Below are positions 6,593-64,000 of a DNA stretch of 64,000 nt, in pieces. The stretch is from positions 21,803 through 85,802 of the IMG/VR virus record IMGVR_UViG_3300020171_000018; one strand, given 5' to 3'. The notes beneath the pieces are model-generated. The model was not told the origin of the DNA, made no database searches, and saw only the letters and a program-made list of their open reading frames with translations. Positions within the stretch are counted from its first letter, which is position 1. Each line of letters opens with the position of its first letter. A program made the translations under genes and the position numbers. This stretch comes from a virus.

Positions 6593-6875
6593 TAGTGGCT
6601 TCCTGCAACAGGTCTAGCAGTTCGACTTTATGGGCTTTCTCGTTCTTGATGCCCCCCTCAAACATCAGAACATTCGCGTCGCACTGGTCAATCGCTGCCC
6701 TCAATGCCTTCGGGTCATACCGAGTCTTGCGGGGGAGGGACATTTTGACGCTCAACTGGCCCGCCCTCGCAAGCTCCATTACATGGTTCCAGCACAGCGG
6801 GAGGTTGTCCTCCCGCCGTGTGACCACAGCATCCTCGTGACACCCGTTCTGTCCGCAAGCACCTAAGTTCTTCAT
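6585..6875 (-). CDS. small zinc-binding protein in the fibre operon, 96 aa
   Basis: The 96-residue product has an N-terminal CGQNGCHEDA and a later CWNH, a likely zinc site, followed by a charged helical tail. Position between two fibre-like genes, with 4- and 8-base overlaps, suggests a chaperone or assembly role, but that rests on context alone. Confidence 0.5.
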   Translation of the reverse strand: MKNLGACGQNGCHEDAVVTRREDNLPLCWNHVMELARAGQLSVKMSLPRKTRYDPKALRAAIDQCDANVLMFEGGIKNEKAHKVELLDLLQEATSG

Positions 6876-9364: not shown

Positions 9365-9379
9365 GTCGTCCTCCTCATG

Positions 9380-13058: not shown

Positions 13059-13640
13059 TTACGGCCCCCCAATGGTAGCTAGGGGAGCAACCGTCTCAGG
13101 AGTCAACTTCCCGCCTGGTACGGTAGTCTCCATCCCATACACCCGCCCTTGAATCCAAGTCCTAGCCATAGCGTGATCCAACTCCCCGTCGTTGTCCAAG
13201 TCGTAGTAGGCTATGTCGGCGGGGAGACCCGCTTGACGGGCAAGACTGGCAGCCAGGATCGCCGTATCATCACAGTCTCTCCATTTTGGCACCTGTCCCT
13301 GGGCCAGCATAGAAGCGAACTCATCAGGACTCGTGATGCTCTCCATGCCAACTGGGTCATCAGTGTACCCCACCGTGTCCGATATGTAGGTCTGGATGGC
13401 CTGGGCCGCCTGAGGGGTGCCGGGGTTGGCGCCTGCTTGGGACAGCACCGAGCGGGCAAGGTGGCTCACGGACTCGCTCTGCTCCCCACGGTGCAGGAAC
13501 TCCTGAGAGGCTTGCATGACCTGATTGGCGGAGTCGGGGCTGATTGGGAACTGGACTACCTCGCCAATGCTGCTGCCGATACCTGGCCGCCCCTTGACCC
13601 CAGTAGACCCCAATCCTGACCCTTGGCTCAGTCTCAGCAC
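13059..13640 (-). CDS. transglutaminase-like cysteine peptidase
   Basis: The 193-residue product has WRDCDD (Cys123), a histidine in ELDHAMART (His156) and an acidic residue in GMETT (Glu171). This is the Cys-His-Asp/Glu order of the transglutaminase-like peptidase superfamily. It could process virion proteins, for example at the NP motifs of its neighbours, or help penetration; neither is shown. Start GTG after GGAGAGGGGG. It lies between the membrane protein and a small virion protein. Confidence 0.65.
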   Translation of the reverse strand: MLRLSQGSGLGSTGVKGRPGIGSSIGEVVQFPISPDSANQVMQASQEFLHRGEQSESVSHLARSVLSQAGANPGTPQAAQAIQTYISDTVGYTDDPVGMESITSPDEFASMLAQGQVPKWRDCDDTAILAASLARQAGLPADIAYYDLDNDGELDHAMARTWIQGRVYGMETTVPGGKLTPETVAPLATIGGP

Positions 13641-22710: not shown

Positions 22711-23421
22711 TTAGCTCCACTTCACTGCGATGTTTGATAGGACCCCTTCTGGTGGCGGCGGTGGCGGCGGGGGAGGAGGAGGGGTAGTGCCCTTGCCCCC
22801 CAGCATCAACAGCGCACCAACCCCTACTGCCGCTATACCCAACATCCCGCCCCCGCCCCCCTTTTCTGGGTTGCGTGGGTTGCGTGGGTTGCGCCGTACA
22901 CGGGGAACCACACCCTTCTTCGCCAGGGCCTGGTATGCGATGAACAGCCCCCCACCAATGAGAAGGAGCGGCCCCAGACCAGCGGCTATTCCTCCCCCGA
23001 TGTCTTTCCATGAAGAGCGCGCCAGCTTGAACGTCAACGCCCCAAACAGGGCTAGTATTCCGATGGCAATAGCGATTACAATGATGGCTGGCCAGGCCCC
23101 TATGCCCCCGCTTCTGGACCCCACTCCGTTCTCCGTCACAACCCCGTTCCGGACCGTGCCGCTGGACTCCCTCTCAGGCGCCCCCTCCATGTCCACCGTC
23201 ACCCGATACCCGTCGAATATCGGGGCCGTGTCCTGCTCAATGACGTAGTGGAGGAGCTTCCCCCGGAGTCCCGGAGTCCACCCGGTTCCGGCGTTTATAG
23301 CGGCTGCAATGGTGCCAGAGAGCCCCGGAGTCCCAGAGAACGCCATCACCAACTGACTGGAGGGGCCGTGGTAGCTGTCACCCCGGGGCGTAGTCACCTC
23401 TCTTGATATAGCGTAGGCCAT
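22711..23421 (-). CDS. three-helix membrane protein with NP repeat and polyproline tail, 236 aa
   Basis: Three hydrophobic segments are clear: WPAIIVIAIAIGILALFGAL, a second GLGPLLLIGGGLFIAYQAL, and MLGIAAVGVGALLML. Between the last two lies a basic triple NP repeat (VRRNPRNPRNPEKGG). An eleven-proline run and a short strand end the protein. The N-terminal 100 residues are soluble. This is a strong candidate for a protein of a virion membrane, or a pore for genome release. The basic NP stretch probably faces the DNA side. Confidence 0.6.
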   Translation of the reverse strand: MAYAISREVTTPRGDSYHGPSSQLVMAFSGTPGLSGTIAAAINAGTGWTPGLRGKLLHYVIEQDTAPIFDGYRVTVDMEGAPERESSGTVRNGVVTENGVGSRSGGIGAWPAIIVIAIAIGILALFGALTFKLARSSWKDIGGGIAAGLGPLLLIGGGLFIAYQALAKKGVVPRVRRNPRNPRNPEKGGGGGMLGIAAVGVGALLMLGGKGTTPPPPPPPPPPPEGVLSNIAVKWS

Positions 23422-33079: not shown

Positions 33080-33862
33080 TCAGGGGTATATCAGGTCCAA
33101 AACCCTCGGTATGGTCAACCCCTGCTCAACCGTGGTGTCATACGGGGGCTCCGCATCCACTGCGAACTCCGCCCCGTACAGCCACGCAGCCAACCTGCAG
33201 TCAACCACATTCGCTACAAACCCACGCCTAGAATGATGCTCCGTTCGCACATTCATCTGCACCAGATATGGACTCTGGTTGAACCCCCGCCTCACCTGCT
33301 TGCCGGTCGCCTTGTCGTTCACATACTCCCCATGGAGCTGGAATGTGACCAGCAGGTTCACATCGGTCTCGTAGGCGTCCTTGTATATCTGCGACTGCTC
33401 GGCGTTGACTGGCCCATAGTCCCTGGGGAGCACCTGGGTGAGCTTACCAAACCGGGCCAGCCTGTGCAGCTCCCACATCTCCGACCCTGAGTCAATAGCA
33501 ATAGAGGCTGCGTTCTTCAGGGCATACTTGTAGTCGCCCACGAACTGCTCCCAGGTCTCCAGGTACTTGTCCTTGTCGGCCTGTATCGGCACCTCCGGCA
33601 CATCGTAGTGGGCCACGTAGATGTCCCCTGGGCCGAACTCTGTCAGCCCCAAGAACTTGTCCACCACCCCTTCTAGGCCCTTGTCAAAGTTCATCACGTA
33701 GAGGGGCTGAGGGGCGGTCAGTGCCAAGGTGCTCTTGCCGGACTTCTCACCCCCCTCTACGGCGGCGATTATGCGCCTCTTGGTGGAGACTGTGGCTGGC
33801 TTGAATCGAGTGGTGCGGTCTGTGGTGGGTTGTATTTTGTCAACGGCCTTAGGTACGGGCAT
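33080..33862 (-). CDS. Sak4-like RecA-fold ATPase
   Basis: Walker A GGEKSGKST (37-45) and Walker B IAIDSGSE (121-128) in a 260-residue protein with the length and order of phage Sak4/AAA_24 single-strand annealing ATPases. It would act in viral recombination with the SSB-like protein and nucleases encoded just upstream. It overlaps the next gene by 14 bases. Confidence 0.8.
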   Translation of the reverse strand: MPVPKAVDKIQPTTDRTTRFKPATVSTKRRIIAAVEGGEKSGKSTLALTAPQPLYVMNFDKGLEGVVDKFLGLTEFGPGDIYVAHYDVPEVPIQADKDKYLETWEQFVGDYKYALKNAASIAIDSGSEMWELHRLARFGKLTQVLPRDYGPVNAEQSQIYKDAYETDVNLLVTFQLHGEYVNDKATGKQVRRGFNQSPYLVQMNVRTEHHSRRGFVANVVDCRLAAWLYGAEFAVDAEPPYDTTVEQGLTIPRVLDLIYP

Positions 33863-35921: not shown

Positions 35922-37595
35922 CTACCGTGGTTCCAATGGATCCGGTAGGGTTGCATACTCCCTCCATGCTTGCTGGAACCACCAAGGAAAGAACCTATTG
36001 TATTGTCGTCTAAACCACCTCCATGTATCATCCAAGACAATCGTTTCACTCCAATCCGTCTCTGACCTGATTGCTCGGAAGCTCTGTTGAATTAGCGTAG
36101 TGGCAGCCACATACGCGGCGTAATCTGGGTCTTGGGCCTCTCTGGCCTTGAGCTGATTGGTCTGTGTGGTCGGGAACGGCACCTTGGGGAGAATCTGATA
36201 CCTGGCCAGATTTCCCATCAAATCAAGCCCAATTCCCGCCCTTGGGGATATTAGGACCGCCGGAGGGTCAGCCGCCTTGAACTCCTCCAGCGGCCCATCC
36301 CCATTCCCCCGCTCATGGACGTAGAACAGCGACCTGTGCTGCGTCCGGGCCAGAATCGCCTCTTGGAGCCAATATGAAACAGAGTGCACCACCCCCTTTC
36401 TATCGAGCCTTCGTCCTATCACCTGGTCAATCCTGGCCGCCAGAGTATCCAGCTCCTCTGACGTGACCTGATAGCGCATCTTGGCCGTTGGCACGTATAT
36501 CACTGGCCTATTCTCCACTGGCCAGCGACAGGGGTATGAGGCATAGTCCCACTGCCCATCTGGAACCCCCAGCAGGTGGGCGTACATCTTCCCATCGGGC
36601 ATGGTGCCACTCATAAACACAACTTTGCTCTCCGCCAATGTGTAGATGTCTTGGGCAAACTCTCCCACCCAGATTGGCTTGAGGTCAGCACCCACTAGGG
36701 AGCCCGGGGAAATCTCCGCCCCGTGTCTCCTGCGGTGCCGAGCATCCGCGGCAATGATGGGCTCCACCACCCAGCTCTCGGGCTTCATAACGGAGATTCG
36801 CAGCAGGGCATCCACCAGGGTTTCGGCCTTCTTGAGACCCTTGGCCGTCTCCCTTGGTATGTCGTCGTTGGTGCCCCCCTGCGTGGCCTCCTTGACCCGT
36901 CCGGCCCATCCTGCCAACTCCTGTCGGGCCAACTTGAGGGTCTCCTTGGCCCAGGCTGCCCAGTCCTCTACCTTCTCGCTGGCTGGTAGCCCAATATCCG
37001 CATCCAATCCCAACACCTGTTCTAGTTGTGGGAGCGTGACTCTGACGGATACTAATTGCATTAGCCAGCCCTCAAGCAAATGGGCCTCATCCACAATGAT
37101 GGTGTGCCATTTACCCAGGCCGCCCCCAAACTTGTTGGCGTACCAGAAGTAGGCGACGTTGGTAATGAGGATTCTGGTGGTCTGGGCTTCCCTCTTGGCG
37201 TCGTAGTAGGAACAGCCCCCGTCTCTTAGCTCACACTTGAACCCGAGATGGCAGGGACCCTCTTCTACGGTTAGGAATGGTTTGAGGGCGCAACTATGTT
37301 CGCTCATTCCTTTCATCACGAACGCCTGCCCCTCGAACTCTTGTGCGTATTGATCTTGGAGACTTTTGAGGGGCACAAGGATAGCCACTCGTTGGTCATC
37401 CATGAGAAGTTGAGCAATGGACATGGCGACAACCGACTTGCCGGAGCCAGGAGGTGCCTCACGAATGGTGTATCTCTTGGGGGAGGAAAGAATAGAAGAA
37501 GTCATGCGCCACTGGTCCCGACGCCAGCTAGGGTGCTTGAACCCCAAATCCGTTGGGGGGAAAGGCGCATCGTCTACAGGTGGCCGTCTGGTCAC
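35922..37595 (-). CDS. XPD/DinG-like superfamily 2 helicase
   Basis: Walker A APPGSGKSVV, DEAH box IIVDEAHLLEG, and four cysteines between (HSCALKPF, CHLGFKC, CSYYD) in the position of the iron-sulphur cluster of XPD/DinG helicases. Motif VI region VLISPRAGIGLDL and QSFRAIRSETD. It unwinds DNA 5' to 3' in relatives, so it is the likely replication or repair helicase. GTG start after AAGGGGCCACC. Confidence 0.85.
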   Translation of the reverse strand: MTRRPPVDDAPFPPTDLGFKHPSWRRDQWRMTSSILSSPKRYTIREAPPGSGKSVVAMSIAQLLMDDQRVAILVPLKSLQDQYAQEFEGQAFVMKGMSEHSCALKPFLTVEEGPCHLGFKCELRDGGCSYYDAKREAQTTRILITNVAYFWYANKFGGGLGKWHTIIVDEAHLLEGWLMQLVSVRVTLPQLEQVLGLDADIGLPASEKVEDWAAWAKETLKLARQELAGWAGRVKEATQGGTNDDIPRETAKGLKKAETLVDALLRISVMKPESWVVEPIIAADARHRRRHGAEISPGSLVGADLKPIWVGEFAQDIYTLAESKVVFMSGTMPDGKMYAHLLGVPDGQWDYASYPCRWPVENRPVIYVPTAKMRYQVTSEELDTLAARIDQVIGRRLDRKGVVHSVSYWLQEAILARTQHRSLFYVHERGNGDGPLEEFKAADPPAVLISPRAGIGLDLMGNLARYQILPKVPFPTTQTNQLKAREAQDPDYAAYVAATTLIQQSFRAIRSETDWSETIVLDDTWRWFRRQYNRFFPWWFQQAWREYATLPDPLEPR

Positions 37596-42954: not shown

Positions 42955-45081
42955 ATGCCCCTAACCGCGCTCGACGGGATTCTAGGCGACCTTAATGAAT
43001 CTCAACTCCAGGCCGTGGTCGCGGATACAGACCACCCCATACTCGTACTTGCGGGCCCGGGTGCCGGAAAAACTAGAACACTTGTTCACAGAATAGCTTA
43101 CATCATAGACTACCTCGGCTTCCCCGCTGACTCCATCCTCGCCGTGACCTTCAGTCGGGCCGCCGCTGCCGAGATGCGTCGGCGCTTGCACTTACTGCTT
43201 GGCCCCAGAGCCCGAGACCTCCGCGCCTCCACAATCCACTCCTACTGCTACGACTTGATGCACCGTAGAGGGGTTGACTCCAAGCCCATTGAGTACGACG
43301 CCCAAAAGCGGTTTGTCACGGACTACATCAAGACTGCCCTGATAGCCCAACCCAAGCTCAGGGATGTCCTCAACCCCACTCAATGGCGCTGGGCGCTGAG
43401 CTGGATAGATGCAGCCAAGGACGAGCTTATTCCCCCTGCCCACTCCCTGAAATGGTTTGCAGACCATATCCAGACCAACCTCCGCTCTGTTCCAGAGATG
43501 GCTCGGGGCGTGGCAGCAGTTGAGGCCCCTCTGCTGACTGACCTCTACACCAAATACCAAACACACATGCACGCAGAGGGCCTAGTGGACTTTAGCGACA
43601 TGCTCGTATACGCCCTAGGCACGTTTAGGACAGAGCCAGCGGTTTTGGCCCAAGAACAGGAATGGTACAGGTATGTCTGTGTTGACGAGTTACAGGACAC
43701 TTCGGCCATCCAGTATCAAATACTCTCCCTCGTTGCCAAGCACACTCACCTCTTTGTGGTAGCTGACGAAATGCAGGCGGTCTATGCGTTCAGAAACGCT
43801 GACCCTAACCATAATGTCCTTGCCTTCTTAAAAAGGCATCCACAGGGGGAAATCATCAAACTTGAGTGCAACTATCGCTCCACCCGAACCATAGTCAATG
43901 TGGCTAACAGGCTCTTGGCAGCAGCCCCCTATGAAGACGACAGGTACAGAAAGGTGCTCCAACCTCGGCCAGACGCTCAAGAGGGCCTACAAGTAGAGGT
44001 GAGCTACCACCGTGATGACCAAGAAGAGGCAGACTCGGTTGCAGACAAGATAGAGGCTCTAATCGGCGCCACGGGCTACCTGCCCCAAGACATCTTCGTG
44101 CTCTATCGCACCAACGCCCAGTCCGCCCCGATCGAGCGTGCCCTGTCAGCCCGGGACATCCCCCATGTGCTCATGGCTGGCCTGGGCTTCTGGGAGCGGT
44201 CCGCCACGAAGGACATGATGGCGTATCTGCGCCTCTACAACAAACGGTTCGACAACTCAGCCTTTGAGCGGGTCTGCAACTACGCTTCAATCCACATGTC
44301 CACCAGCGGCACCAGGTATCTTGGCCGGAAGTTTGTGGAAGCCTGCAAACAGCTCAACCCCGACTCCTATTGGGACGCGACGGTGAGCATGGCCCAGAAC
44401 CCACCTGAGAAGAGCTGGCGCCCAGGCATCCACGACTTCATTCGCATGATGGCAGGGGCCCCCAAGTCAGACTCCTTGGGCTGGTCTCTGCCGGAACTCG
44501 TGCTCTACTTCACCAAGCAGTATGACCATCACAGACAGATGGAGGACACCACGGACTCAACCGGGTGGCTCACGGGGAGCGCTATTGCTAGTCTGTCCCG
44601 GAGGTTCCCCAGCCTGCCCAGACTGATTGCCTACTCAGTCAAGGAGAGCAAAAAAACCAAGAGCGAGGCTGAGTCGTACAAGTCGGTGGTCTTAGGGACA
44701 ATCCATTCAGCCAAGGGCCTTGAACGAAAGGTGGTATTTGGCATTGGTATCACGGACTCCCTCCTGCCACACTATCTGAGTAGGAACCTGTATAGCCCCT
44801 GGTTGCCGCCGCCCGTGCTTCTCTCAATTTCGGATGAAAGACGGGTATGCTTTGTGTTAATAAGTCGCGCTGCCGAACGGTTGTACCTCTCTTGCCCAAT
44901 GAGCAACGGGTGGAAGCCCAACATGCGCCCCAGCAGGTTCCTTGAGGAGATGGGGCTGCTGGACATAGCTCAGGTGCCAGAGGCATACAGGGGGGCCGTG
45001 GAGAGGGCGAGGAGTGAGAAGTGGGCAGACGAGCCCCCTGATAAGGCTGGACATAGAACACTGAGCGAGGGCAGCCAGTGA
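42955..45081 (+). CDS. UvrD/PcrA-like superfamily 1 helicase, 708 aa
   Basis: ATG at 42955, directly after the previous stop. Motif I LVLAGPGAGKTRTL, motif II CVDELQDTSAIQ, motif III VVADEMQAVYAFR, motif IV ECNYRSTRTI, and the later motifs GTIHSAKGLERK and ISRAAERLYLSCP are all present, so the ATPase is intact. The 2B region is shorter than in PcrA. It should unwind 3' to 5' in replication or repair, separate from the DinG-like helicase on the other arm. It overlaps the next gene by GTGA. Confidence 0.9.
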   Translation: MPLTALDGILGDLNESQLQAVVADTDHPILVLAGPGAGKTRTLVHRIAYIIDYLGFPADSILAVTFSRAAAAEMRRRLHLLLGPRARDLRASTIHSYCYDLMHRRGVDSKPIEYDAQKRFVTDYIKTALIAQPKLRDVLNPTQWRWALSWIDAAKDELIPPAHSLKWFADHIQTNLRSVPEMARGVAAVEAPLLTDLYTKYQTHMHAEGLVDFSDMLVYALGTFRTEPAVLAQEQEWYRYVCVDELQDTSAIQYQILSLVAKHTHLFVVADEMQAVYAFRNADPNHNVLAFLKRHPQGEIIKLECNYRSTRTIVNVANRLLAAAPYEDDRYRKVLQPRPDAQEGLQVEVSYHRDDQEEADSVADKIEALIGATGYLPQDIFVLYRTNAQSAPIERALSARDIPHVLMAGLGFWERSATKDMMAYLRLYNKRFDNSAFERVCNYASIHMSTSGTRYLGRKFVEACKQLNPDSYWDATVSMAQNPPEKSWRPGIHDFIRMMAGAPKSDSLGWSLPELVLYFTKQYDHHRQMEDTTDSTGWLTGSAIASLSRRFPSLPRLIAYSVKESKKTKSEAESYKSVVLGTIHSAKGLERKVVFGIGITDSLLPHYLSRNLYSPWLPPPVLLSISDERRVCFVLISRAAERLYLSCPMSNGWKPNMRPSRFLEEMGLLDIAQVPEAYRGAVERARSEKWADEPPDKAGHRTLSEGSQ

Positions 45082-47951: not shown

Positions 47952-48301
47952 TTCCAGCCCGCCCCTGAGCTGCCCGTGCTCCTCCCACTGAAGTCCACCA
48001 ACTCCTCGCCTGAGAACGTCGCCCACATAAATCCTCCTCCTAAAGAGGGGGCTACCAGTAGCACATGACCCCTAGGGAGCCTCCTGCCCGCCAGAACAGT
48101 ATCCCTGTTGCTGTAGATGCCCGTGAGAGTTTTGAATCTCCATCGAGGTGCCCGCTCCCCCATCCACCCATTCACACTCACCACGGAGCCAATGGGCACT
48201 CGTCTGAGGGGAATCTTGCCCACACCTCTAGCGATTGTCTTGCAGGCGCGCATACGGGCCTCCCTAGCCTCCAAAGGATAAAGGCAGGTCACCGGGGCCA
48301 T
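47948..48301 (-). CDS. hypothetical basic protein, 117 aa
   Basis: ATG at 48301 lies inside the 3' end of the ATPase gene. The product has a basic helical start and a strand-rich part (PIGSVVSVNGWMGERAPRWRF, LVAPSLGGGFMWATFSG). No family recognised. It ends 4 bases inside the convergent ribbon-helix-helix gene. Coupling to the ATPase suggests a packaging or virion role. Confidence 0.5.
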   Translation of the reverse strand: MAPVTCLYPLEAREARMRACKTIARGVGKIPLRRVPIGSVVSVNGWMGERAPRWRFKTLTGIYSNRDTVLAGRRLPRGHVLLVAPSLGGGFMWATFSGEELVDFSGRSTGSSGAGWN

Positions 48302-49874
48302 CTGACTGAGCTCTATGCCTGGGAGCCTGTAGTCCGGGGATGTTTGGCACCACGACAGACTGGGCCTCTGCTTGAGCGGGTTGCTCACCGCCAAACTGCG
48401 AGCCCGACATGACCGCCTCTTCCTCGGCTCTGACGGATGCATAAGCCCTGTTCAAGTCATTCGACAGCGCCCCAAGGGTGCCGCCTCTGGGGATGTACCT
48501 GCTCATGTCTCGATGCCCGCGAGCTGGCCTTTGGGTCTCTGCTTGCCTAGAGGTCATTGGCCCAATAGTCCCAAGGGTGGGTACGGGGCTGGGCAGGGCG
48601 GGCTGGTTGGCCCCCATACCCGGGAGCACATACGCTCCCTGAGCTCCTTGGCCCCTGTAAGCGCCTCCAATACGCCTGTACTTTGCTATCTCGTGGGTCA
48701 TCCAAGCGGGCCTCTCGTACTTAATCATCCCCTGATGCTCGGAGTCCATGAAGCCGTAGATGTACTTGACTCGCTCCTCCCTAGGAATGGCGTCGAAGGC
48801 GGCCTTGGCCTGGCGCAGAGTATAGAGCATCTTCCTGCGCTCAGTGACCTCGAACATTGGGTCGGGGGGTTTGAGGAAGATGATGTCGGACCTGATGCCG
48901 GCTTTGTTGATATCTGAGCTGTCCTGCACTGTGCAGACCAATAGGATGCCACGGTGGGCCACGGTGTTTTGTAGCTCCTCAAAGGTCAGGCCAAGTTGGG
49001 ACATTGAGCGTTTGGAGTTGATGTAGAGTGAGGCGTCGTCCAGAATCACGGCGCACCCAGCGGGAACCTGCTGCATGAGAGGCCCCAAGAGGTGGTGCGG
49101 GACGGCAATCATGTTAGGCGGGAGAGGAATGTTGGCACTGGGGCCTACCCAGAATATCGGGTAGCCACCGTGCTTTTGCTGCCACTTAGCGGCCAAGGGT
49201 CCCGCAGCGAAGGTTGTCTTCCCGGAGTTTCTTCTGCCCACGACGAACACGGAGAGGTACTCACTATTCAGGGCCTCCTCCAACCAGGCTGGCCACTGTT
49301 CCCCAACCGAGCCTATACCGCTTAGCCCCCCCATCGGGTTGACACCCCCAGCTATCCCAGCAATGGACGCCACAATCTTGCTCTGAATAGCCGTGGCTAT
49401 CTGGGTGATGCTGGACTGGAACCCCTGCCTGAGCCCCCGACCTACGGCGTCCCCGAGGAACTTGCCCAAATCCAGGCCGGAGAACGGGCTGGTCTCCTCA
49501 TGGGTCCCTTCATGGATGGGTTGGGCTGGGGCTGGGAATTGGCTGGGCGTCTGGGGTCCCACCTGAGGGCCAGAGGGCATCATGGACTGGCCCCCGGGCA
49601 TCATCGTCTGAGGCATGGTCTGGTAGGGCTGCTGGTAGGGCTGTAGCGCGTTCTGCTGGTAGGGTTGCATGGCGTTCTGCGGGGCGTTCTGACCCACGCC
49701 GCGACGCTTGCGCCCACGGACTGGCCCGGGGGCCTGCATGAAGGGCTGCTGGGGGCCTTGGGACTGACCCTGGGGCTGAGCTGGCATCATAGGGGTTGGG
49801 ACTGGGATGTAGATGATGTCGGGAGTCAGAACCTTTCTTCGAGTGGTTGCCCTTGTTGTCTTTCTCCTTGGCAT
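48264..49874 (-). CDS. FtsK/HerA/A32-type P-loop ATPase, putative genome-packaging motor, 536 aa
   Basis: ATG after AAGGAGAACCACA. The first 120 residues are basic then Gln/Pro/Met-rich; a helical part follows. The ATPase core has Walker A GRRNSGKT (213-220), Walker B AVILDD (275-280) and CTVQDSS (314-320) after the second strand, the order of the A32/FtsK-HerA packaging ATPases of tailless viruses and not of terminases. The C-terminal 130 residues are low-complexity. With no terminase in the window this is the best packaging candidate. It is flanked by the 560-residue partner gene. Confidence 0.7.
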   Translation of the reverse strand: MPRRKTTRATTRRKVLTPDIIYIPVPTPMMPAQPQGQSQGPQQPFMQAPGPVRGRKRRGVGQNAPQNAMQPYQQNALQPYQQPYQTMPQTMMPGGQSMMPSGPQVGPQTPSQFPAPAQPIHEGTHEETSPFSGLDLGKFLGDAVGRGLRQGFQSSITQIATAIQSKIVASIAGIAGGVNPMGGLSGIGSVGEQWPAWLEEALNSEYLSVFVVGRRNSGKTTFAAGPLAAKWQQKHGGYPIFWVGPSANIPLPPNMIAVPHHLLGPLMQQVPAGCAVILDDASLYINSKRSMSQLGLTFEELQNTVAHRGILLVCTVQDSSDINKAGIRSDIIFLKPPDPMFEVTERRKMLYTLRQAKAAFDAIPREERVKYIYGFMDSEHQGMIKYERPAWMTHEIAKYRRIGGAYRGQGAQGAYVLPGMGANQPALPSPVPTLGTIGPMTSRQAETQRPARGHRDMSRYIPRGGTLGALSNDLNRAYASVRAEEEAVMSGSQFGGEQPAQAEAQSVVVPNIPGLQAPRHRAQSDGPGDLPLSFGG

Positions 49875-50569: not shown

Positions 50570-52252
50570 CTAACCCTCCTTGTTGCTATCATCGTTGCTA
50601 TCATCATCCACCAGAGTAGGCACGATGTCAACCACGGCTGCTACGGGAGCGGGACTCTTGGGCTTGTCTGGGGGCCGCACTACTACCGCAACCCCGCTGC
50701 CCCCGCTGCCCCCATCATCGGGCCCATTCTCTCCGACCCCGCTGATGTCGTCACCCCCACTATCACCCTGAGCCTCCCCAGCCCCCTCTACCCCCGCTCG
50801 ATTCATGCTGTTTTCAACCGCCTTGTAGGTGAGGTCAATCCCCTGTTTGACCGAGGTGAGCCAAGTGGTGCCAGCGGGGGTTATGAGCACGGCAGCAACC
50901 GCAGATACAGTGTCAAGGGCTTTCGCATCCATTGTCGCAGAGGCCAGCACCCTGATAAACGGGTTGTCCAAGAGCTTCTTGACCTCGGACAGCAGCACTC
51001 GGACCTCATCCACGGTGAACTCGTGCAGGATGACCTCGAGCTCACTGAGGCCGGGCTTCTGCGCCTGGAGGTCAGCATAGAGTTTCTGTACAAACTCGGT
51101 GGGCCTGAGAGAGAGGGCGTTCTTGAGCCAGTCCCAGTCGGCGGCCTTGAGCAGCCCCATGAGGTCAGTGCCCTTGAGGCGGGTCTTGAGCTTGTTGAGG
51201 AGTTGAGCCGTGTCCACTGGGGCCTCCTGGGTTGTAGGCTGCATTGTAGGTTGCACGGGTTGGGGTGCCCGTGGTTGGGGCCCTGACTGTGGGGCACCAG
51301 CGCGTTGTGGCTGCCCAGGGCCAAGGGCGGGCTGCTGAGGCGCCCCACCAACTTGGGGCTGGGTCGGAGCGGGCGGCTGCTGGGGTATCAGGGCTGTAAG
51401 CCTGGCAACTAGTGGCTCTAGTTGCTGTGTACGTGCTAACTCCATTACGAGGTCTATCAGGCTAGTCTTGTGCGTGTCCTCCGAATCGCCCGTACCCGTT
51501 CGCCGCACAAAGCCATACTTTTCAGCCCGCGCTATAGCCTTGTCCAACTTGTCCAGTGGGTCTTCATCCTCCTCGTCACCTTCCTCCTTGGGGGGTTTTA
51601 TGTTAAACGCCTTGTAGAGTCTGGCCGTGGCTACCTTGTCCCGTATAGCAGGGTTGCTGTCCAACATGGCAAGGGCGTCGTCAGTGGCACGCTCATCCAG
51701 ACGTTCTTGAAAGGTCTTGGGCTTCTCGGCCTCCTTTTTTCGGGCCTCTCGGATAGCCTCATCCGGGGTCTGCCACTTGGGGGCGCCGGGAAACTTGTAC
51801 CCAATCACAGGCCCGGTGTAGGCGGCGCTCTTGGCATAGATTACATACTCGCCCCCGCCGAACTGCGGGACCCAGTGCTGCTCGATGTCCTCCCGGCTGG
51901 GCATGTCGGAGACGTACTCCCCAATTGTGACCAAGGAGACGCTGCCAAGTCGAACAGGTTTTCTAACCTCGAACTTGGGCACGGGGAAGGCTTCACTGCG
52001 GGAGCGGCGAATGCGCTCTATTAGGCGAATGTTGTTGAGAACCTTGCGGTTCAGCTCCCAGTTGAAGTCGTCACCACTATTGACTACATACGGGAGGGAG
52101 CGGTAGGGGGCGAAGCGATCCCCCGAACCCTCCGGGGCGGCACCATCTTCGGATTCGTCCAGTTCGTCGGGGTAGAAATCGTCGCCGGGCTTGATGAGAC
52201 GGACGTGTTTGCCACGGGAGAAGAGTTTTAGAGGGTTGAGTGAGATACCCAT
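50570..52252 (-). CDS. large virion-associated protein next to the packaging ATPase, 560 aa
   Basis: ATG after AGGAGGTCACTACTCTC. An acidic N-terminal region, a domain with GGEYVIYAKSAAYTGPVIGY, a charged helical part, a long Pro/Gln linker and a helical C-terminal domain with hydrophobic stretch AVAAVLITPAGTTWL, ending in an acidic low-complexity tail. No enzyme motif. Position next to the A32-like ATPase suggests a portal-vertex or scaffold partner in packaging. Confidence 0.5.
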   Translation of the reverse strand: MGISLNPLKLFSRGKHVRLIKPGDDFYPDELDESEDGAAPEGSGDRFAPYRSLPYVVNSGDDFNWELNRKVLNNIRLIERIRRSRSEAFPVPKFEVRKPVRLGSVSLVTIGEYVSDMPSREDIEQHWVPQFGGGEYVIYAKSAAYTGPVIGYKFPGAPKWQTPDEAIREARKKEAEKPKTFQERLDERATDDALAMLDSNPAIRDKVATARLYKAFNIKPPKEEGDEEDEDPLDKLDKAIARAEKYGFVRRTGTGDSEDTHKTSLIDLVMELARTQQLEPLVARLTALIPQQPPAPTQPQVGGAPQQPALGPGQPQRAGAPQSGPQPRAPQPVQPTMQPTTQEAPVDTAQLLNKLKTRLKGTDLMGLLKAADWDWLKNALSLRPTEFVQKLYADLQAQKPGLSELEVILHEFTVDEVRVLLSEVKKLLDNPFIRVLASATMDAKALDTVSAVAAVLITPAGTTWLTSVKQGIDLTYKAVENSMNRAGVEGAGEAQGDSGGDDISGVGENGPDDGGSGGSGVAVVVRPPDKPKSPAPVAAVVDIVPTLVDDDSNDDSNKEG

Positions 52253-56559: not shown

Positions 56560-57066
56560 GTGCCTACGGTTACACTTATCAAGGGAAACCCCGCGAACCC
56601 CAGACGCCACAGGCGCCACTACCGCAGGAACCCCGGAGCCCTCGCGGCCGCAACCAGATCCCTACCCGAATTGGGCGATGCCGTTGCGGGCGTGCTGGGC
56701 GCAGGCGTGGTCCTGACCGTCCCCGCGATGGTGATGAAGACCAGCACGGGCTGGACAAGAGTGCTGGTTGGCGGTCTCATTGGCTTGGGCGGTGCCTGGG
56801 CGACACGCCAGTTCGTCAACCCCAAGGCTGGCAATGCATTTGGGCTGGGCGCTGCTGTCATAGTGCTGGGCCAGGCAGTGGGCGTCGCCACCCAGGGCAA
56901 GTGGGGCATCCCGCTCACCCTGACCGTCGTGCCGCCAATGGAAGGCCGACTCTCCGCCCCCACTCCTCAGCCGACACTGATGAGTGGCATGGACAGGAGC
57001 GTGGGTGCCTTCGTGGATACCACATACGGGGGCGAGAACAGCGCCCTGAACCCACCGTTGGTCTAG
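56560..57066 (+). CDS. membrane protein with N-terminal NP repeats, 168 aa
   Basis: GTG at 56560 after TGGGAGGTGTACGA. The N terminus TLIKGNPANPRRHRRHYRRN is a basic NP-repeat arm, followed by helices AVAGVLGAGVVLTVPAMV, VLVGGLIGLGGAWATRQFV and AFGLGAAVIVLGQAVGVAT, then a short strand-rich end. Viral membrane proteins with this design (basic NP arm plus glycine-rich helices) are known to me from other uncultured viruses. It is likely an abundant virion membrane protein, with the arm binding DNA. Confidence 0.65.
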   Translation: MPTVTLIKGNPANPRRHRRHYRRNPGALAAATRSLPELGDAVAGVLGAGVVLTVPAMVMKTSTGWTRVLVGGLIGLGGAWATRQFVNPKAGNAFGLGAAVIVLGQAVGVATQGKWGIPLTLTVVPPMEGRLSAPTPQPTLMSGMDRSVGAFVDTTYGGENSALNPPLV

Positions 57067-57176
57067 GGGTATCGGTCTAAGGGCCGGTCTAACCTGAACG
57101 TGGAATACCCTGAACATGGAACACCCTGAACAGGCCCGGCTAGGAATAGTCGGGAAGTAGCAGGAAGGAGAAACCG

Positions 57177-57713
57177 ATGTCGTGCATAGTACCAGTCTCG
57201 GAACTCAGCATTGATGCCATACGGAACATGAAACTCAAGGCTCGCCGGATGCTCACGGAGCTGATGGTGCGGGCTGGCAAGGTGCAGGCCCCCAATCAGG
57301 TAGCCGTGCGGGACATTCGCGCCAACGATGACCTCACTATCGCCAACGGCGCAGATACCAACGAGTTCATCACGCCGGCTCTGGTAGCAGCCACCAACCT
57401 CACCTACGTCAACGCGCTGCTGGCTGCCAACAGGTATCTGGCCATTTACGCCGTGGCGATTGACTCCACGCTCCCCGCCCCCATCACCATGCTGTTCCAG
57501 GTCGGCCCCGGTGGAACCACCACTAGGGCTTACGTGGACCTCCAGAAGCTCTACGTGCATGATGAGTTCGTGGGCTACCTGGATGACCCGGTGGTGTACC
57601 AGCCCTCCGACCAGATGTTCATTGCGATGGAAATAGGTCGCACTGACGCAGCCGGCCAGAGGGTGGTCTTGATCGGGTACGTGGCTGAGCCTATGGGCCA
57701 GAGCATCAGCTAG
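57177..57713 (+). CDS. candidate major capsid protein 1, 178 aa
   Basis: ATG after AAGGAGAAACCG, behind a 110-base leader containing a repeated CCTGAACATGGAACA element. A helical start (AIRNMKLKARRMLTELM) precedes a run of strands (NEFITPALVAATNLTYVNAL, YLAIYAVAIDSTLPAPITML, QRVVLIGYVAEP) compatible with a single jelly roll. The gene stands apart from neighbours and is followed by a strong hairpin, as expected for a highly expressed capsid gene. No homologue recalled; the capsid assignment is inference. Confidence 0.45.
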   Translation: MSCIVPVSELSIDAIRNMKLKARRMLTELMVRAGKVQAPNQVAVRDIRANDDLTIANGADTNEFITPALVAATNLTYVNALLAANRYLAIYAVAIDSTLPAPITMLFQVGPGGTTTRAYVDLQKLYVHDEFVGYLDDPVVYQPSDQMFIAMEIGRTDAAGQRVVLIGYVAEPMGQSIS

Positions 57714-57775
57714 ACCCAAAACCTAGAACCAAGGTCTGTCGGCTTTGTCTCCGGGCCGCGGTGTCCATACGGCTC

Positions 57776-57901: not shown

Positions 57902-58354
57902 ATGCCACAGTCGCAAAGAGTGAACAGAGTACTCAACATCCTGATGGGATTCAGGCTCTCATACCGTTTGATACCCGCCGTAGCAGCCGGTGCGGCAACT
58001 CCGGGTGTACCAGTCACTTCTGGCGCTCCCGGCGTCGGCGCAGACGTGAACCTCGTGGCAGCCAAGGGCATCGTAGTTGACTTCTGGGCGTGCCAGTTCA
58101 ACTTGGACACCCAGGGCGGTGCCATCCAGATAATGGAACTTCATGTGTGGCAGGGAGCGGCGGTCTGGGCCATAGGAACCCAGATTTCATCGTTCCGCTA
58201 CCACCCGTCACTGGTCACTCCCAACATCGGGGCCATCCCGGTTGGGCCGTACCCGGTACGGCTCTTGGCCAACGCCCAAGTGCAGATGGCCGCAGCTGGC
58301 GCGGCGGCCAGGGTGCTGGGTGTGTCCCTCCTGTATGGGGTGAACTTCATCTAA
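57902..58354 (+). CDS. candidate major capsid protein 2, 150 aa
   Basis: ATG after GACAAGGAGCAAGAAC. A short basic N terminus is followed by strands (FRLSYRLIPAVAAGAATPGV, GIVVDFWACQFNLD, VWAIGTQISSFRYHPS, ARVLGVSLLYGVNFI) in a small jelly-roll-like pattern. Like its neighbour it is flanked by long non-coding spacers (188 and 93 bases) in a genome where genes normally overlap, and it is followed by an 11 bp hairpin. A pair of adjacent small capsid genes is characteristic of single-jelly-roll viruses. Confidence 0.45.
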   Translation: MPQSQRVNRVLNILMGFRLSYRLIPAVAAGAATPGVPVTSGAPGVGADVNLVAAKGIVVDFWACQFNLDTQGGAIQIMELHVWQGAAVWAIGTQISSFRYHPSLVTPNIGAIPVGPYPVRLLANAQVQMAAAGAAARVLGVSLLYGVNFI

Positions 58355-58368
58355 CCCAAGGCATGTGG

Positions 58369-60096: not shown

Positions 60097-60747
60097 ATCG
60101 CTACGCTTACGTTCGCAAGATGGTTCGAACCTGCTCCCGTCCAAGCGGTAGTGCTCCCCGGAGAGAACATTGGAATCTACGTCTCCGGGCAGTACCAGTT
60201 CTACCGGGTGCCCTTTGTGGAGGCAATCCCGTCATCCCGGCAGATGACGCAGAACCTGGGCGTAGTGGGTGCAAACGCCTCCAGCGGCGGCGGCACCCCG
60301 ACGCAGATAACGGTGACGGACGTGCCCGATGGCTATTTTGGGCACTTCCGCTGGATGCCCATTGATGACGCCGAGATAGAGCTGTTCGAGAGCCTGAGCG
60401 TCGGACGGTACGCGACTCTTGGCACTAGGGGTCGGGTGAATGTGCAAACAGGGCTAGTGGACCCGACCTGGGCCTCCACCACCATTGGCGTGTTCGGCGC
60501 TCAGCGGTCTGCATTCATGCTGGCGTGGAACATTGCGGCCATTGGCCTGACCCAGAGCAGGATCAAGTTCTGGGGGTACAAGTATACCTTGGTGCCCTTC
60601 GCCCCGAGCTGGAATATCATCCTGCACAGGATTGCGTTCGCTCAGCCGACGGGTGACCTGACGGCGAGCATGACCCCGGAGCAGAAGAAGCAACTCGCTG
60701 ACTTCAGGGCGACGCTCGTTCCCGCTGAGGGCTTCACGGCGGCTTAG
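60097..60747 (+). CDS. virion protein, beta-rich, possible ATC start, 216 aa
   Basis: Coding sequence is convincing from TLTFARWFEPAPVQAVVLPG onward, but the first ATG/GTG/TTG in frame is a GTG at 60151 that lacks a ribosome-binding site. A strong GGAGG lies 6-7 bases before an ATC at 60097, so either a rare ATC start or the GTG is used. The protein has two beta domains (NIGIYVSGQYQFYRVPFVEA, GYFGHFRWMPIDDAEIELFE) and a basic-free C-terminal helix. Probably a minor capsid or vertex protein. Confidence 0.55.
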   Translation: MATLTFARWFEPAPVQAVVLPGENIGIYVSGQYQFYRVPFVEAIPSSRQMTQNLGVVGANASSGGGTPTQITVTDVPDGYFGHFRWMPIDDAEIELFESLSVGRYATLGTRGRVNVQTGLVDPTWASTTIGVFGAQRSAFMLAWNIAAIGLTQSRIKFWGYKYTLVPFAPSWNIILHRIAFAQPTGDLTASMTPEQKKQLADFRATLVPAEGFTAA

Positions 60748-60817: not shown

Positions 60818-61198
60818 ATGACCATGCTAGTAACAGTGCCATCTAGGGACATAGTTGAGGCGCAGGCAGGCTCCAAGCTCAAGAATGGTGGCCTCATCTC
60901 ACTGATTGCAAACGCTACACCCCTGACGGTCTACACCATGCCGACGGGGCTGACGGCCAGGCTATGGGCGCTCGAGGTGTTCAACGGGAACGCCGCTGAC
61001 ACCATTGTCTCCATAGGCACGGGGTTGGCCCCGCTGGTGCTCGCCATCCCTAGGCTGTTTGTAGGCGCGGGCCTTCACGACATAATTCCGCTGCCCCCGT
61101 TCGAGTTCTCGGCCAACATTACGGCGGAGGCGTCGGTGGCAGGGGCCGCTCCCGCCAACGTGGCCGTGATTCTCTACGTCGTTAGCATCGGCGGGTAG
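60818..61198 (+). CDS. small beta-sandwich virion protein, 126 aa
   Basis: ATG after TGGAGGCGCTACG. Strands such as LISLIANATPLTVYTMPTG, LWALEVFNGNAADTIVSIG and NVAVILYVVSIGG form a compact barrel, like other small virion beta proteins here. No catalytic motif. Confidence 0.5.
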   Translation: MTMLVTVPSRDIVEAQAGSKLKNGGLISLIANATPLTVYTMPTGLTARLWALEVFNGNAADTIVSIGTGLAPLVLAIPRLFVGAGLHDIIPLPPFEFSANITAEASVAGAAPANVAVILYVVSIGG

Positions 61199-61254: not shown

Positions 61255-61611
61255 ATGGGTCAGATAGAGATTGCCTCTTTTACGCTAACGGTTGCTGCGT
61301 CAACAGAGGCTACCGCGCGACAGAACGCCCAAGTTGCTGGCCGCATATTTGAGGTCGGAATCCATTGGCCGGGCGGGTGCAACGGGTTGGTGCGCGTGAG
61401 GGTCTCTCACGGCGCTGTACAAATCGTGCCACGAGACGGGGGGCTGGCGATGGATAATGTGCTGGCTCCCTACCAGGTGGATGAACCAATAGCCAGGGGG
61501 GAACCCCTAGAGGTGGTTGTCCAGAACACAGACGGGGCCTGGCCGCACACAATCACCGTTACTGCCTCCATTAGAAAGGCGGCCAGTAGCGCCGGTGGGG
61601 GCGGAAAGTGA
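61255..61611 (+). CDS. small beta-sandwich virion protein, 118 aa
   Basis: ATG after GGCAGGAGGAGCT. Strands EIASFTLTVAASTEATARQN, GLVRVRVSHGAVQIVPRDG and HTITVTASIRKAASS. Coupled to the next gene by a GTGA overlap. Likely part of the same capsid assembly. Confidence 0.5.
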   Translation: MGQIEIASFTLTVAASTEATARQNAQVAGRIFEVGIHWPGGCNGLVRVRVSHGAVQIVPRDGGLAMDNVLAPYQVDEPIARGEPLEVVVQNTDGAWPHTITVTASIRKAASSAGGGGK

Positions 61612-62096
61612 CGACTCAGACCACTCGACTCATTCCCGCTGTAGGAATAGGCTTCCCCGACTACAGCCGTGGCATCTCCACACAGACTGTGCCCCTGATT
61701 CGCAGCGCAGATGATCAGTACGCCTTTTCGGCCTGGGACTCGGTACTGATAGCCGATGGAGCAAGCACGATAATTGACATTCCAGCCACCCCCCTCATCA
61801 GTGGGGTTCCGACCGTCGTGATATGCTACGACTTCTACTCCTCTATGGACGCAGATGGGTTGTGTATGATGGTGGTGCAATCTGTCTCGGCGGCCCCGGT
61901 GGTGGTGTCACAGGTGGTACGCAAGTTGGGCTATGGGCTAGTGGAAGAGCACTTGGCTGTTGGGTATCCGTTCCAAAACATCATACGCCTCACGCTCCAG
62001 AACCGGACGGGTCAGGCGAGGACTTTCACTTACGGCGTCCTCGGCGTGTGGACGAGTAAGCAGACATTCAACCTAACGAGCACACCTGTACCATGA
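61608..62096 (+). CDS. virion protein, IPAVG family copy 1, 162 aa
   Basis: GTG start overlapping the upstream stop. N terminus TRLIPAVGIGFPDYSRGI matches the next protein's TPIPAVGVGRPDYTQNI, so the two are paralogues. The rest is strand-rich (VPTVVICYDFYSSMDADG, RLTLQNRTGQARTFTYGVLG). Probably capsid or vertex proteins of a hetero-oligomer. Confidence 0.55.
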   Translation: MTTQTTRLIPAVGIGFPDYSRGISTQTVPLIRSADDQYAFSAWDSVLIADGASTIIDIPATPLISGVPTVVICYDFYSSMDADGLCMMVVQSVSAAPVVVSQVVRKLGYGLVEEHLAVGYPFQNIIRLTLQNRTGQARTFTYGVLGVWTSKQTFNLTSTPVP

Positions 62097-62602
62097 TAAC
62101 TACTACAACACCCATCCCCGCTGTAGGAGTAGGCAGGCCGGATTACACGCAGAACATTGCGTGGGCGGCGGTGTCAACCCAGCGTGGGGTGCAGATACGG
62201 CAAACCTTTCATGCCTATGGCACCAATGTGGATACCTTGCCCTACCCTAACGCTTATGGAATGGTCGTGCCTTGGTACAACCACAGCAGCGCTGTGGTGT
62301 ATGTGGTGCCAGATGACCTTCCGGCACACATGCAGAGCCTCCACCTGACTACTCCGCGAGACGTGCTGAAAACCATCCAGCTTTTCCGTTTCGCTTCCTG
62401 GGCTGACTATCTCCTCTGGAATGTGGAGAAGCTGGAGGGTGAGCTCTGGGGGTATGGCGCGCTGACGCTGCGCTGGTCCAAGGGTATGCCAGCGGTGACG
62501 GGGAGGGTCTACGTGATAGGCTTTGGCGAGTTCTCCAACGAGGTGCACTTCGACGTGAGCATCCAGTTGCACAACATCCTGGAAGAGGTAGTGTATGGCT
62601 AA
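62093..62602 (+). CDS. virion protein, IPAVG family copy 2, 169 aa
   Basis: ATGA overlap with the previous gene. Shares the IPAVG-x-G-x-PDY start with copy 1. Strands RQTFHAYGTNVDTLPYPNA and ALTLRWSKGMPAVTGRVYVI follow. Part of the rightward structural operon. Confidence 0.55.
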   Translation: MITTTTPIPAVGVGRPDYTQNIAWAAVSTQRGVQIRQTFHAYGTNVDTLPYPNAYGMVVPWYNHSSAVVYVVPDDLPAHMQSLHLTTPRDVLKTIQLFRFASWADYLLWNVEKLEGELWGYGALTLRWSKGMPAVTGRVYVIGFGEFSNEVHFDVSIQLHNILEEVVYG

Positions 62603-62969
62603 GCCGGACGACCTCAACAAGCCGGGGCCTCCACTCAAGCCGGAGCCGGAGCCGGAGCCCAAGCCGAAGCCGGAGCCGGACAAGCCCTCGGAGCCAACGG
62701 GGGACGTGACATCTGTGGTGCCCACTGAGCGGATTTGGTACGAGGTGGGGAAGCCTGAGAAGCATGAGGTGGTGCATTTCCCCTCTGCCCCAATCGGCCC
62801 AGGTCTGAAGTTCTACCATGCCACGGGTGTCACGCAACTCCTTCTCCGTGAGGGACACAGCAAAGAGGCTACAGGTGCCTTTCTCATAGTCGTGAATCCG
62901 CGGGAGAGGGCACAGGAGAAGAAGGAGAAGCGGGAGAGGGAGAAGAGGGAGAAGGAGACGAAGACATGA
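62595..62969 (+). CDS. virion protein with Pro-Glu-Lys linker, 124 aa
   Basis: An N-terminal linker of about 40 residues (PEPEPEPKPKPEPDKPSEP) is followed by a beta domain (IWYEVGKPEKHEVVHFP, KFYHATGVTQLLL) and a very charged C-terminal helix of Glu/Lys/Arg. A rigid tether between two virion layers is a possible role. Overlaps both neighbours. Confidence 0.5.
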   Translation: MAKPDDLNKPGPPLKPEPEPEPKPKPEPDKPSEPTGDVTSVVPTERIWYEVGKPEKHEVVHFPSAPIGPGLKFYHATGVTQLLLREGHSKEATGAFLIVVNPRERAQEKKEKREREKREKETKT

Positions 62970-63307
62970 CAGAGCAGCGAAGGGTAGTGGAGATAAACCC
63001 CCTAGCTCCTGTGAGCATTACGTCTCTGCCACTGATCACTAGCGCCATCAGCACGGTGGCGGTGGCTATCGTGACCACCGTGGTCCTGGTGGCAACGGCG
63101 GCTAGACGCTACGCCTGCATAGTCAACACGGGGCCGACGTGGGTGTACCTGGCCTTCGCCGAGCCGGCAGTAGTGGGGCGAGGTATCCCCCTGGCCCCCA
63201 ATGGGCTGGGCAGCTACGAGATAACGCTGCTGAACCCGTTTGTTGGCGCTGTCAACGCTATAGCTAATGGTGCGGCCAGCAGCGTGGCTGTAGAGGAGGC
63301 TACGTGA
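62966..63307 (+). CDS. beta-rich virion protein, 113 aa
   Basis: ATGA overlap. A Val/Ile-rich segment (VAVAIVTTVVLVATAA) and a C-terminal domain (ACIVNTGPTWVYLAFAEPAV, GSYEITLLNPFVGAVNAI) of the kind found in phage surface proteins, where a small barrel presents loops. Its stop shares a base with the next ATG. Confidence 0.5.
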   Translation: MTEQRRVVEINPLAPVSITSLPLITSAISTVAVAIVTTVVLVATAARRYACIVNTGPTWVYLAFAEPAVVGRGIPLAPNGLGSYEITLLNPFVGAVNAIANGAASSVAVEEAT

Positions 63308-64000
63308 TGCTGCGAAACTCCGAAAAGAGCTTCACCGAGCGGCTATCCTTTTTGGGGACCGTCTCGGGAATCGTGGGTGCGCCGAACTTCCAGTGCGCCA
63401 ACCTGATAGGCCATGACCCCGACTTTTTTGAAGGCTACTGGGTCTATGTTATCTGGGACGCGGGTGGTCTTGGCGGCGCTCCCCAGAGGCAGCAGCTAGT
63501 CTGCACCGGGTATGTCAGCGCCACCGGAGACCTCGCGGTAGGTGCCTTTGCGCCTGCTATTGCCATAGGGGATAAAGTCCTTCTAATCCATCCGTCACTA
63601 GCAGCATCCATTACATCGGGTGTGGACATTAGCACCATACTCGCGCTCGTGAGCGCTGAGCTGACACTGGACGAGGACAATGGTGTGGTCACTGCCACTG
63701 GCTTGGGCACCGAGGACAACGTGTACATCAATGCGGGCCCTGCGGGGGAGTTCGAGCCCCGCGTGGTGAAGATAGACCTGGACCTCATGGTGGGTGGCGA
63801 TACCACGGTTATCAGATACTACGAGCGCCTGACGCCAGGCGTTGGATGGTGGCTCATGGATTATGAAGCTTACAGCGGAATAGACGGCGGCCTGCTGGAT
63901 GGCGTCAAGGCCATCTGCGTCGAGATGCAGCCCAATAGGTTTGGGGTGCGCGTCACGCTTGAGCAAACAGCGGGTGCCGTTAAGAACTACCAGTGGCAGA
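63307..64000 (+). CDS. large virion surface protein, partial
   Basis: Begins at the ATG at 63307 (overlapping the upstream stop) and stays open to the end of the window, giving 231 residues so far. Strand-rich sequence (YWVYVIWDAGGLGG, VVKIDLDLMVGGDTTVIRYY) with a jelly-roll or Ig-like look. It is probably a spike, fibre or vertex protein. No signature is visible in the part present. Confidence 0.6.
   Translation, partial: MLRNSEKSFTERLSFLGTVSGIVGAPNFQCANLIGHDPDFFEGYWVYVIWDAGGLGGAPQRQQLVCTGYVSATGDLAVGAFAPAIAIGDKVLLIHPSLAASITSGVDISTILALVSAELTLDEDNGVVTATGLGTEDNVYINAGPAGEFEPRVVKIDLDLMVGGDTTVIRYYERLTPGVGWWLMDYEAYSGIDGGLLDGVKAICVEMQPNRFGVRVTLEQTAGAVKNYQWQ

What the first reader, a model, noticed from the sequence alone, without database searches (positions are those of the whole stretch)
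48264..49874. A32-type packaging ATPase with no terminase or tail genes: possible tailless virus with a large genome
Within 64 kb I find an A32/FtsK-HerA-like ATPase, several one- to three-helix membrane proteins and many small beta-sandwich proteins, but no large terminase, portal, HK97 capsid, tail tube or tape-measure gene. This combination points to a membrane-containing, jelly-roll capsid virus. Described bacterial members (for example the P23-77 group) have much smaller genomes, so a member above 64 kb would be new.
Basis: inference. Interest (0 to 1): 0.75.

Follow-up and report, generated by a model that had tools for sequence, protein, structure and literature searches.

The report
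Complete 86-kb virus lacking terminase
This looks like the complete 86,000-base circular genome of a virus of bacteria that has none of the usual tailed-phage packaging, head or tail genes and probably pumps its DNA into a tailless shell with a motor of the kind used by much smaller membrane-containing viruses; the shell protein itself has not been identified.

Summary
The observation largely holds and is stronger than stated. The window is part of an 85,802-base IMG/VR record. Its ends carry an exact 109-bp direct repeat, and the reading frame across the join gives an intact protein with two paralogues in the genome. The record is therefore very probably a complete circular genome of about 85.7 kb. 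PHROGs and Pfam scans of the whole record, plus six-frame searches for terminase and HK97 capsid, find none. The same searches find terminases in two tailed viruses that share a fibre module with it. The window has only four P-loop proteins: a Sak4-like protein, two helicases and the ATPase at 48264-49874. That ATPase has the FtsK-HerA/P9-type layout and is the one plausible packaging motor. It resembles packaging ATPases of tailless viruses (PRD1, PM2, P23-77, SH1, STIV) over Walker A, Walker B and sensor Gln; similarity to terminase is confined to the P-loop. The jelly-roll capsid and the membrane are not shown: no capsid protein is identifiable by sequence, and single-sequence structure models failed (mean pLDDT 39). 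No relative of the ATPase or of the capsid candidates tested was found. Likeliest: a temperate tailless virus about twice the size of SSIP-1 (43.8 kb). Main rival: a tailed phage with unrecognisable genes.

The parts
48264..49874 (-). FtsK-HerA/A32 (P9-like) ATPase, 536 aa: Pro/Gln-rich N-terminal region (about 1-195), ATPase domain (about 196-400), disordered-looking C-terminal region
49215..49238 (-). Walker A GRRNSGKT, residues 213-220
49035..49049 (-). Walker B VILDD, residues 276-280 (second acid is D; E in the five reference ATPases)
48924..48926 (-). Gln 317, sensor glutamine at the end of the GILLVCTVQ strand
50570..52252 (-). 560-aa protein upstream of the ATPase on the same strand, also with a Pro/Gln-rich linker; candidate partner, no relatives found
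63892..64000 (.). Right copy of the exact 109-bp direct terminal repeat (the left copy is bases 1-109 of the record, outside the window)
63304..64000 (+). ORF that continues across the join to a stop (237 aa in all); paralogue of the proteins at 11321 and 11844
56560..57066 (+). Two-helix membrane protein with R/K-rich NP motifs, near the start of the late block
57177..57713 (+). 178-aa capsid candidate (highest coding score in the block); fold not determined
57902..58354 (+). 150-aa protein rich in beta-favouring residues, no family
60151..60747 (+). 198-aa protein, capsid candidate, no family and no relatives
60818..61198 (+). 126-aa hydrophobic protein rich in beta-favouring residues
61255..61611 (+). 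118-aa small protein of the late block
61608..62096 (+). 162-aa protein, paralogue of the next one
   Evidence: E 2e-5
62093..62602 (+). 169-aa protein, paralogue of the previous one
62966..63307 (+). 113-aa protein with one hydrophobic stretch
6125..11116 (-). Four-gene fibre/adhesin-like module (155, 80, 830 and 578 aa), shared in order with a tailed-phage record
11321..12200 (-). Two paralogues (170 and 118 aa) of the protein that spans the join
13059..13640 (-). Transglutaminase-like protein, weakly similar to SSIP-1 structural protein gp34
   Evidence: Pfam hit attributed to this protein by inference
22711..23421 (-). Three-helix membrane protein with RNPRNPRNP
26401..29037 (-). Uracil-DNA-glycosylase / 3'-5' exonuclease / family A DNA polymerase fusion
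17626..19800 (-). 724-aa protein with DNA polymerase III beta-clamp domain
33080..33862 (-). Sak4-like P-loop protein (recombination), not a terminase
35922..37595 (-). DEAD/Helicase_C_2 helicase
42955..45081 (+). UvrD-type helicase

Best explanation
The record is the complete, circular (or circularly assembled) genome of about 85.7 kb of a temperate double-stranded DNA virus of a prokaryote, probably a bacterium. It does not use a terminase. The ATPase at 48264-49874, an FtsK-HerA/P9-type motor with long Pro/Gln-rich extensions, pumps the genome into a preformed tailless capsid, perhaps with the co-oriented 560-aa protein as a partner. The late block on the + strand (about 53-64 kb, wrapping through the join to about 9.7 kb of the record) makes the shell from small proteins, then spikes or fibres (LamG, beta-helix and dockerin proteins, and the 6-11 kb module), then lysis functions. 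Shown: closure, absence of recognisable terminase, portal, HK97 and tail genes, and the class of the ATPase. Inferred: that the ATPase packages, that the virion is tailless, and that the capsid is jelly-roll and membrane-lined.
For: Exact 109-bp end repeat and an intact ORF across the join whose paralogues end at the same place. No head, tail or terminase family in the listed results of the whole-record scans beyond a LamG domain and a low-complexity hit. Six-frame terminase and HK97 searches are negative here; terminase is found in both tailed relatives of the fibre module and HK97 in one. Only four credible P-loop proteins, three of them recombination or helicase proteins. ATPase: hhalign to the alignment of five tailless-virus packaging ATPases gives E 4.5e-5 over Walker B to sensor Gln; terminase gives 0.15 over the P-loop only; Sak4 control 0.0047 over the P-loop only. 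Against 1,119 non-member proteins it ranks 4th by score, and of the top four it is the only one aligned from Walker A to the sensor region. Integrase and a recombination directionality factor. Structural proteins have no match in 50,697 phage records.
Against: No capsid protein is identified; both structure models are unusable. The ATPase comparison rests on one sequence at 15-18% identity, and its Walker B ends in DD where the references have DE or EE. The fibre module at 6-11 kb is otherwise seen next to terminase and portal genes in a tailed phage and in another tailed virus. Single-family searches miss terminases: phrog_2 found one in only 16 of 26 large, partly fragmentary virus records. 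The 109-bp repeat could in principle be a repeat of a larger replicon.
Confidence: 0.52

Rival explanations
1. A tailed phage (Caudoviricetes) of a far-diverged lineage whose terminase, portal, capsid and tail genes are too divergent to recognise; the ATPase does something else, such as genome segregation.
For: The 6-11 kb module is shared in order with a record that has terminase and portal and partly with a tailed virus that has HK97 capsid and terminase. Replication genes (PolA, Sak4, helicases) are of types common in tailed phages. phrog_2 misses 10 of 26 large virus records.
Against: Whole PHROGs and Pfam scans are negative; all other P-loop proteins are accounted for, so there is no free motor for a terminase; no tape-measure-like long helical protein was noticed. 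The shared module also occurs in Patescibacteria chromosomes in a locus without obvious phage genes, so it does not mark a tail.
Confidence: 0.22
2. A virus of another non-tailed architecture (filamentous, spindle-shaped or pleomorphic) in which an FtsK-HerA ATPase serves assembly or extrusion, without a jelly-roll capsid.
For: FtsK-HerA ATPases also serve filamentous phages (general knowledge; the P23-77 ATPase itself matches the Pfam Zot model). No jelly-roll protein could be shown here.
Against: Genome size, the large set of small beta-rich late proteins, and absence of the short hydrophobic coat genes expected of those viruses (inspection, not a formal test).
Confidence: 0.1
3. A phage-plasmid or satellite that makes no virion of its own, with the ATPase as a partition or transfer translocase.
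For: Integrase and no identifiable capsid; circular.
Against: Late block with LamG, beta-helix and fibre proteins; no match of the ATPase in 72,556 plasmids; no relaxase or conjugation family in the listed scan results.
Confidence: 0.1
4. Closure is false: the contig is part of a larger tailed-phage genome and the 109-bp repeat is an internal duplication.
For: A short end repeat can arise at repeat boundaries; the terminase could then lie in the missing part.
Against: The protein read across the join is intact and ends where its paralogues g019 and g020 end; the 109 bases occur once in the 64-kb window.
Confidence: 0.06

Closest known systems
[quoted passage not shown]
   Same: Circular dsDNA, integrase, membrane-containing phage whose genome hardly matches others (PMC6356626); its structural protein gp34 shares a transglutaminase-like domain with our protein at 13059-13640 (E 4e-6 to 7e-5).
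   Different: 43.8 kb; its annotated ATPase gp40 aligns with the P9-type profile over the P-loop only; no other convincing shared protein.
Helvetiavirae: P23-77, SH1 and relatives
   Same: FtsK-HerA-type packaging ATPase in place of terminase.
   Different: 17-31 kb; two single jelly-roll capsid proteins near the ATPase; no VP16/VP17-like match here.
Bamfordvirae of prokaryotes: PRD1, PM2, STIV
   Same: P9-type ATPase with the same motif order.
   Different: 10-18 kb genomes (PMC5894146 gives about 7-18 kb for prokaryotic double-jelly-roll viruses); no beta-rich protein of double-jelly-roll size was noticed in the 56-64 kb block here.
Tailed virus records that carry the g014-g017 module (IMGVR_UViG_3300002460_000209, IMGVR_UViG_3300042731_003254)
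   Same: Homologous fibre-like proteins (83% and 53% identity over the N-terminus of the 830-aa protein).
   Different: They have terminase and portal, one of them an HK97 capsid; the ATPase was not found in them.

Membership tests
FtsK-HerA superfamily, P9/A32-type packaging ATPases | Walker A and Walker B with an acidic pair after a hydrophobic strand | tested here: met
   GRRNSGKT and VILDD; second acid is D instead of E
FtsK-HerA superfamily, P9/A32-type packaging ATPases | Conserved Gln at the end of the strand after Walker B | tested here: met
   Gln 317, aligned with the TQ of the reference profile (the automatic alignment misplaces this part)
FtsK-HerA superfamily, P9/A32-type packaging ATPases | Groups with packaging ATPases in a phylogeny | not testable with these tools
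   15-18% identity and no relatives found
Helvetiavirae (P23-77 group) | Two single jelly-roll major capsid proteins | tested here: inconclusive
   No sequence match to P23-77/SH1 proteins or VP16/VP17 models; fold prediction failed
Helvetiavirae (P23-77 group) | Packaging ATPase instead of terminase | tested here: met
   (class of ATPase and absence of terminase; the packaging role is inferred)
Helvetiavirae (P23-77 group) | Internal lipid membrane | not testable with these tools
   Only small membrane proteins seen
Caudoviricetes | Large terminase subunit | tested here: not met
Caudoviricetes | HK97-fold capsid and portal | tested here: not met
   (sequence profiles only)
Caudoviricetes | Tail tube and tape measure | tested here: not met
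   No tail family among the listed PHROGs matches apart from a low-complexity hit (E 0.011) of the ATPase's N-terminal region

The most novel reading that the evidence does not exclude
A first medium-sized (86 kb) tailless dsDNA virus of bacteria with a P9/A32-type motor, its own replication set (PolA, beta clamp, Sak4) and a late block unrelated to any virus in the phage records searched. It would represent a new high-rank lineage that fills the size gap between prokaryotic varidnaviruses (about 7-44 kb) and the large eukaryotic ones.
Probability: 0.4. Interest if true: 0.85.

Novelty: new variant of a known kind. Interest (0 to 1): 0.62.

Why it matters
If right, tailless viruses with terminase-unrelated motors are not limited to small genomes in prokaryotes, and large ones have been overlooked because their capsids are unrecognisable by sequence. 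The complete genome narrows the search for the capsid to about ten small late genes, so the claim can be tested directly. It also bears on how varidnaviruses grew from about 10-40 kb to the sizes seen in eukaryotes.

Tried and rejected
Structure prediction of the 57177 protein and of the ATPase domain, each from one sequence: mean pLDDT 39 for both; not used, and no fold search run, because a low-confidence model gives meaningless matches. Searches for relatives with the ATPase, the 57177 and 60151 proteins, the concatenated late proteins and the 560-aa partner found nothing. I considered whether the module shared with tailed phages makes this a tailed phage; it also occurs in Patescibacteria chromosomes, so it is not a tail marker.

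Full report
Source and completeness. The window is bases 21,803-85,802 of an 85,802-base virus record. I fetched the missing left part. The last 109 bases of the window are identical to the first 109 bases of the record (length checked). These 109 bases occur once in the window. The ORF that starts at 63304 runs off the right end, and the left end continues it for a few codons to a stop (...NYQWQRLAEE*). The protein read across the join is a paralogue of two window proteins, g019 (E 1.5e-7) and g020 (E 2e-5), and ends at the same point of the family. An accidental repeat would not be expected to give that. I conclude that the record closes on itself: a complete circular map of 85,693 bp, or a genome with a short terminal repeat. 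The tool's listing does not state an end class for this record, so this closure is my own result and not IMG/VR's.

Gene content. A codon-usage gene caller gave 95 genes covering 86% of the window. Pfam and PHROGs scans cover nearly all genes of the window (a few very short ones were left out) and the main ORFs of the left part. Recognised are a UDG-exonuclease-PolA fusion, a beta-clamp domain, Sak4, helicases, an N4/N6 methyltransferase and a Dcm methyltransferase, dCTP deaminase, an integrase with a recombination directionality factor, sigma-70 region 4, transposases, dockerins, LamG proteins and two anti-defence-like proteins. No terminase, portal, HK97 capsid or tail family is in the listed matches, apart from a LamG domain that matches the end of a virion structural protein family and a low-complexity hit at E 0.011. 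The combined scan lists 25 of 36 PHROGs families and 25 of 28 Pfam families; the unlisted ones appear, from the order of the list, to have E-values above 2.4e-6 and 2.9e-5.

How far the absence can be trusted. Six-frame searches with phrog_2 and PF03237 find terminases in both tailed-virus records used as positive controls and none in this record; PF05065 finds a capsid in one control and none here. Single models are not sensitive enough on their own: phrog_2 found a terminase in 16 of 26 large virus records and PF03237 in 7 (many of these records are fragments). The stronger argument does not depend on profiles. A terminase needs a P-loop. The window has four P-loops: Sak4, a DEAD/Helicase_C_2 helicase, a UvrD helicase and the ATPase in question; the left part has none that is credible.

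The ATPase. The domain reads FVVGRRNSGKTTFA ... CAVILDDASLYI ... AHRGILLVCTVQDSSDINKAGIRSDIIFLK. In PM2 P9 the last part reads RKYGVQLYVATQSPQEIDKTIVRQCNFKF and in STIV RHAGIGLILSTQRVYDLMPIVYKQADLIIMF (sequences; the automatic alignment there misplaces our Walker B, and hhalign places it correctly). hhalign against the alignment of P23-77, SH1, PM2, STIV and PRD1 ATPases gives E 4.5e-5 over Walker B to the sensor glutamine. Against terminases it is 0.15 over eight P-loop columns. Sak4 from the same genome matches the ATPase alignment only at the P-loop, E 0.0047. To calibrate, the same alignment was run against 1,124 proteins including its five members. The full-length ATPase came fourth among the non-members, behind three that align over 18-28 P-loop columns, and its own match runs from Walker A to the sensor region. 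So the class is well supported, but the exact place within it is not: identity is 15-18%, no relative was found, and a tree would mean little. Pfam silence is no argument, since PRD1 P9 itself matches no Pfam model.

Capsid. The + strand block 56560-63307 holds small proteins, almost all without any family match, and none matches a phage record (the 58864 protein has a borderline zinc-cluster match). Two of them, 61608 and 62093, are paralogues. The 57177 protein has the strongest coding score of the block and an N-terminal helix followed by strands in a model that is not reliable (mean pLDDT 39). I therefore do not claim a jelly roll. No protein matches P23-77, SH1, PRD1, PM2, FLiP or STIV convincingly; one transglutaminase-like protein matches SSIP-1 structural protein gp34 weakly.

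The shared fibre module. Four genes at 6125-11116 have same-order homologues in a record that also carries terminase and portal, and two or more of them in a second tailed virus with HK97 capsid. Homologues lie in chromosome contigs of two Patescibacteria, in one case beside glycosyltransferase- and secretion-like genes and with no phage genes noticed. The module is therefore an exchanged surface-fibre set and does not decide between tailed and tailless.

How it probably works. Late genes build a tailless shell; the ATPase sits at one vertex and pumps DNA in, as PRD1 P9 and its relatives do (established knowledge for PRD1). The genome is temperate through the integrase and directionality factor. 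Steps shown: completeness, absence of recognisable tailed-phage genes, motor class. Steps inferred: packaging role, tailless virion, jelly roll, membrane, bacterial host.

Comparison with what is known. Prokaryotic double-jelly-roll viruses have genomes of about 7-18 kb (PMC5894146); P23-77 is 17 kb and SH1 31 kb; [quoted passage not shown] An 85.7-kb member would be about twice the largest that I could find in the papers and records searched. Membership of Helvetiavirae or of any named family is not claimed, because the capsid test is inconclusive.

Verdict.

Noticed in passing
window 14437-16989, 17626-19800, 19820-21211, 22711-23421, 56560-57066: Repeated xNP motifs, often with basic neighbours, cluster in these proteins (69 NP in the window proteome against 32 expected from composition and 28 PN; 10 in the RelA/SpoT-domain protein). 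They tend to lie between or beside domains and could be cleavage or virion-targeting sites.
   Followed up: partly
L002 10176-11303 and 10184-11305 (- strand, left part of the record): Two almost fully overlapping genes on one strand in different frames: a Dcm methyltransferase (phrog_363, E 1.8e-55) and a 373-aa protein with its own homologues (phrog_1008, E 9.8e-30; 32 phage records by tblastn).
   Followed up: partly
L011 60-2276 and 560-1291: In the tailed relative of the fibre module, the terminase frame carries an intein-like insert whose DNA also encodes, in another frame, a 243-aa HNH endonuclease (phrog_15471, E 3e-27).
   Followed up: partly
window 6125-11116; L101 6448-16156; L102: The fibre module occurs in tailed viruses and in Patescibacteria chromosomes.
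   Followed up: partly
window 31074-31709: Protein with a Tad4 (Thoeris inhibitor) domain, E 9.6e-32; another protein of the record matches the Acb2/Tad1 hairpin, E 2.3e-10.
   Followed up: no
L002 17231-17971 (- strand): 246-aa protein with a glycine-rich GGGRGRGMGRY segment that looks like a CRISPR RAMP protein by eye; no Pfam or PHROGs match.
   Followed up: no
L002 4675-5001 and 8256-9179: Two dockerin-domain proteins in a viral late block (the second attributed by eye).
   Followed up: no
window 14437-16989: RelA/SpoT nucleotidyltransferase domain (E 1.4e-22) inside an 850-aa multi-domain protein.
   Followed up: no
window 26401-29037: Uracil-DNA glycosylase fused to a family A DNA polymerase.
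   Followed up: no
L004 24775-25737 (SSIP-1 gp40): The annotated SSIP-1 ATPase matches the P9-type profile only at the P-loop and looks RecA/RadA-like by eye; the packaging motor of SSIP-1 may need re-examination.
   Followed up: no
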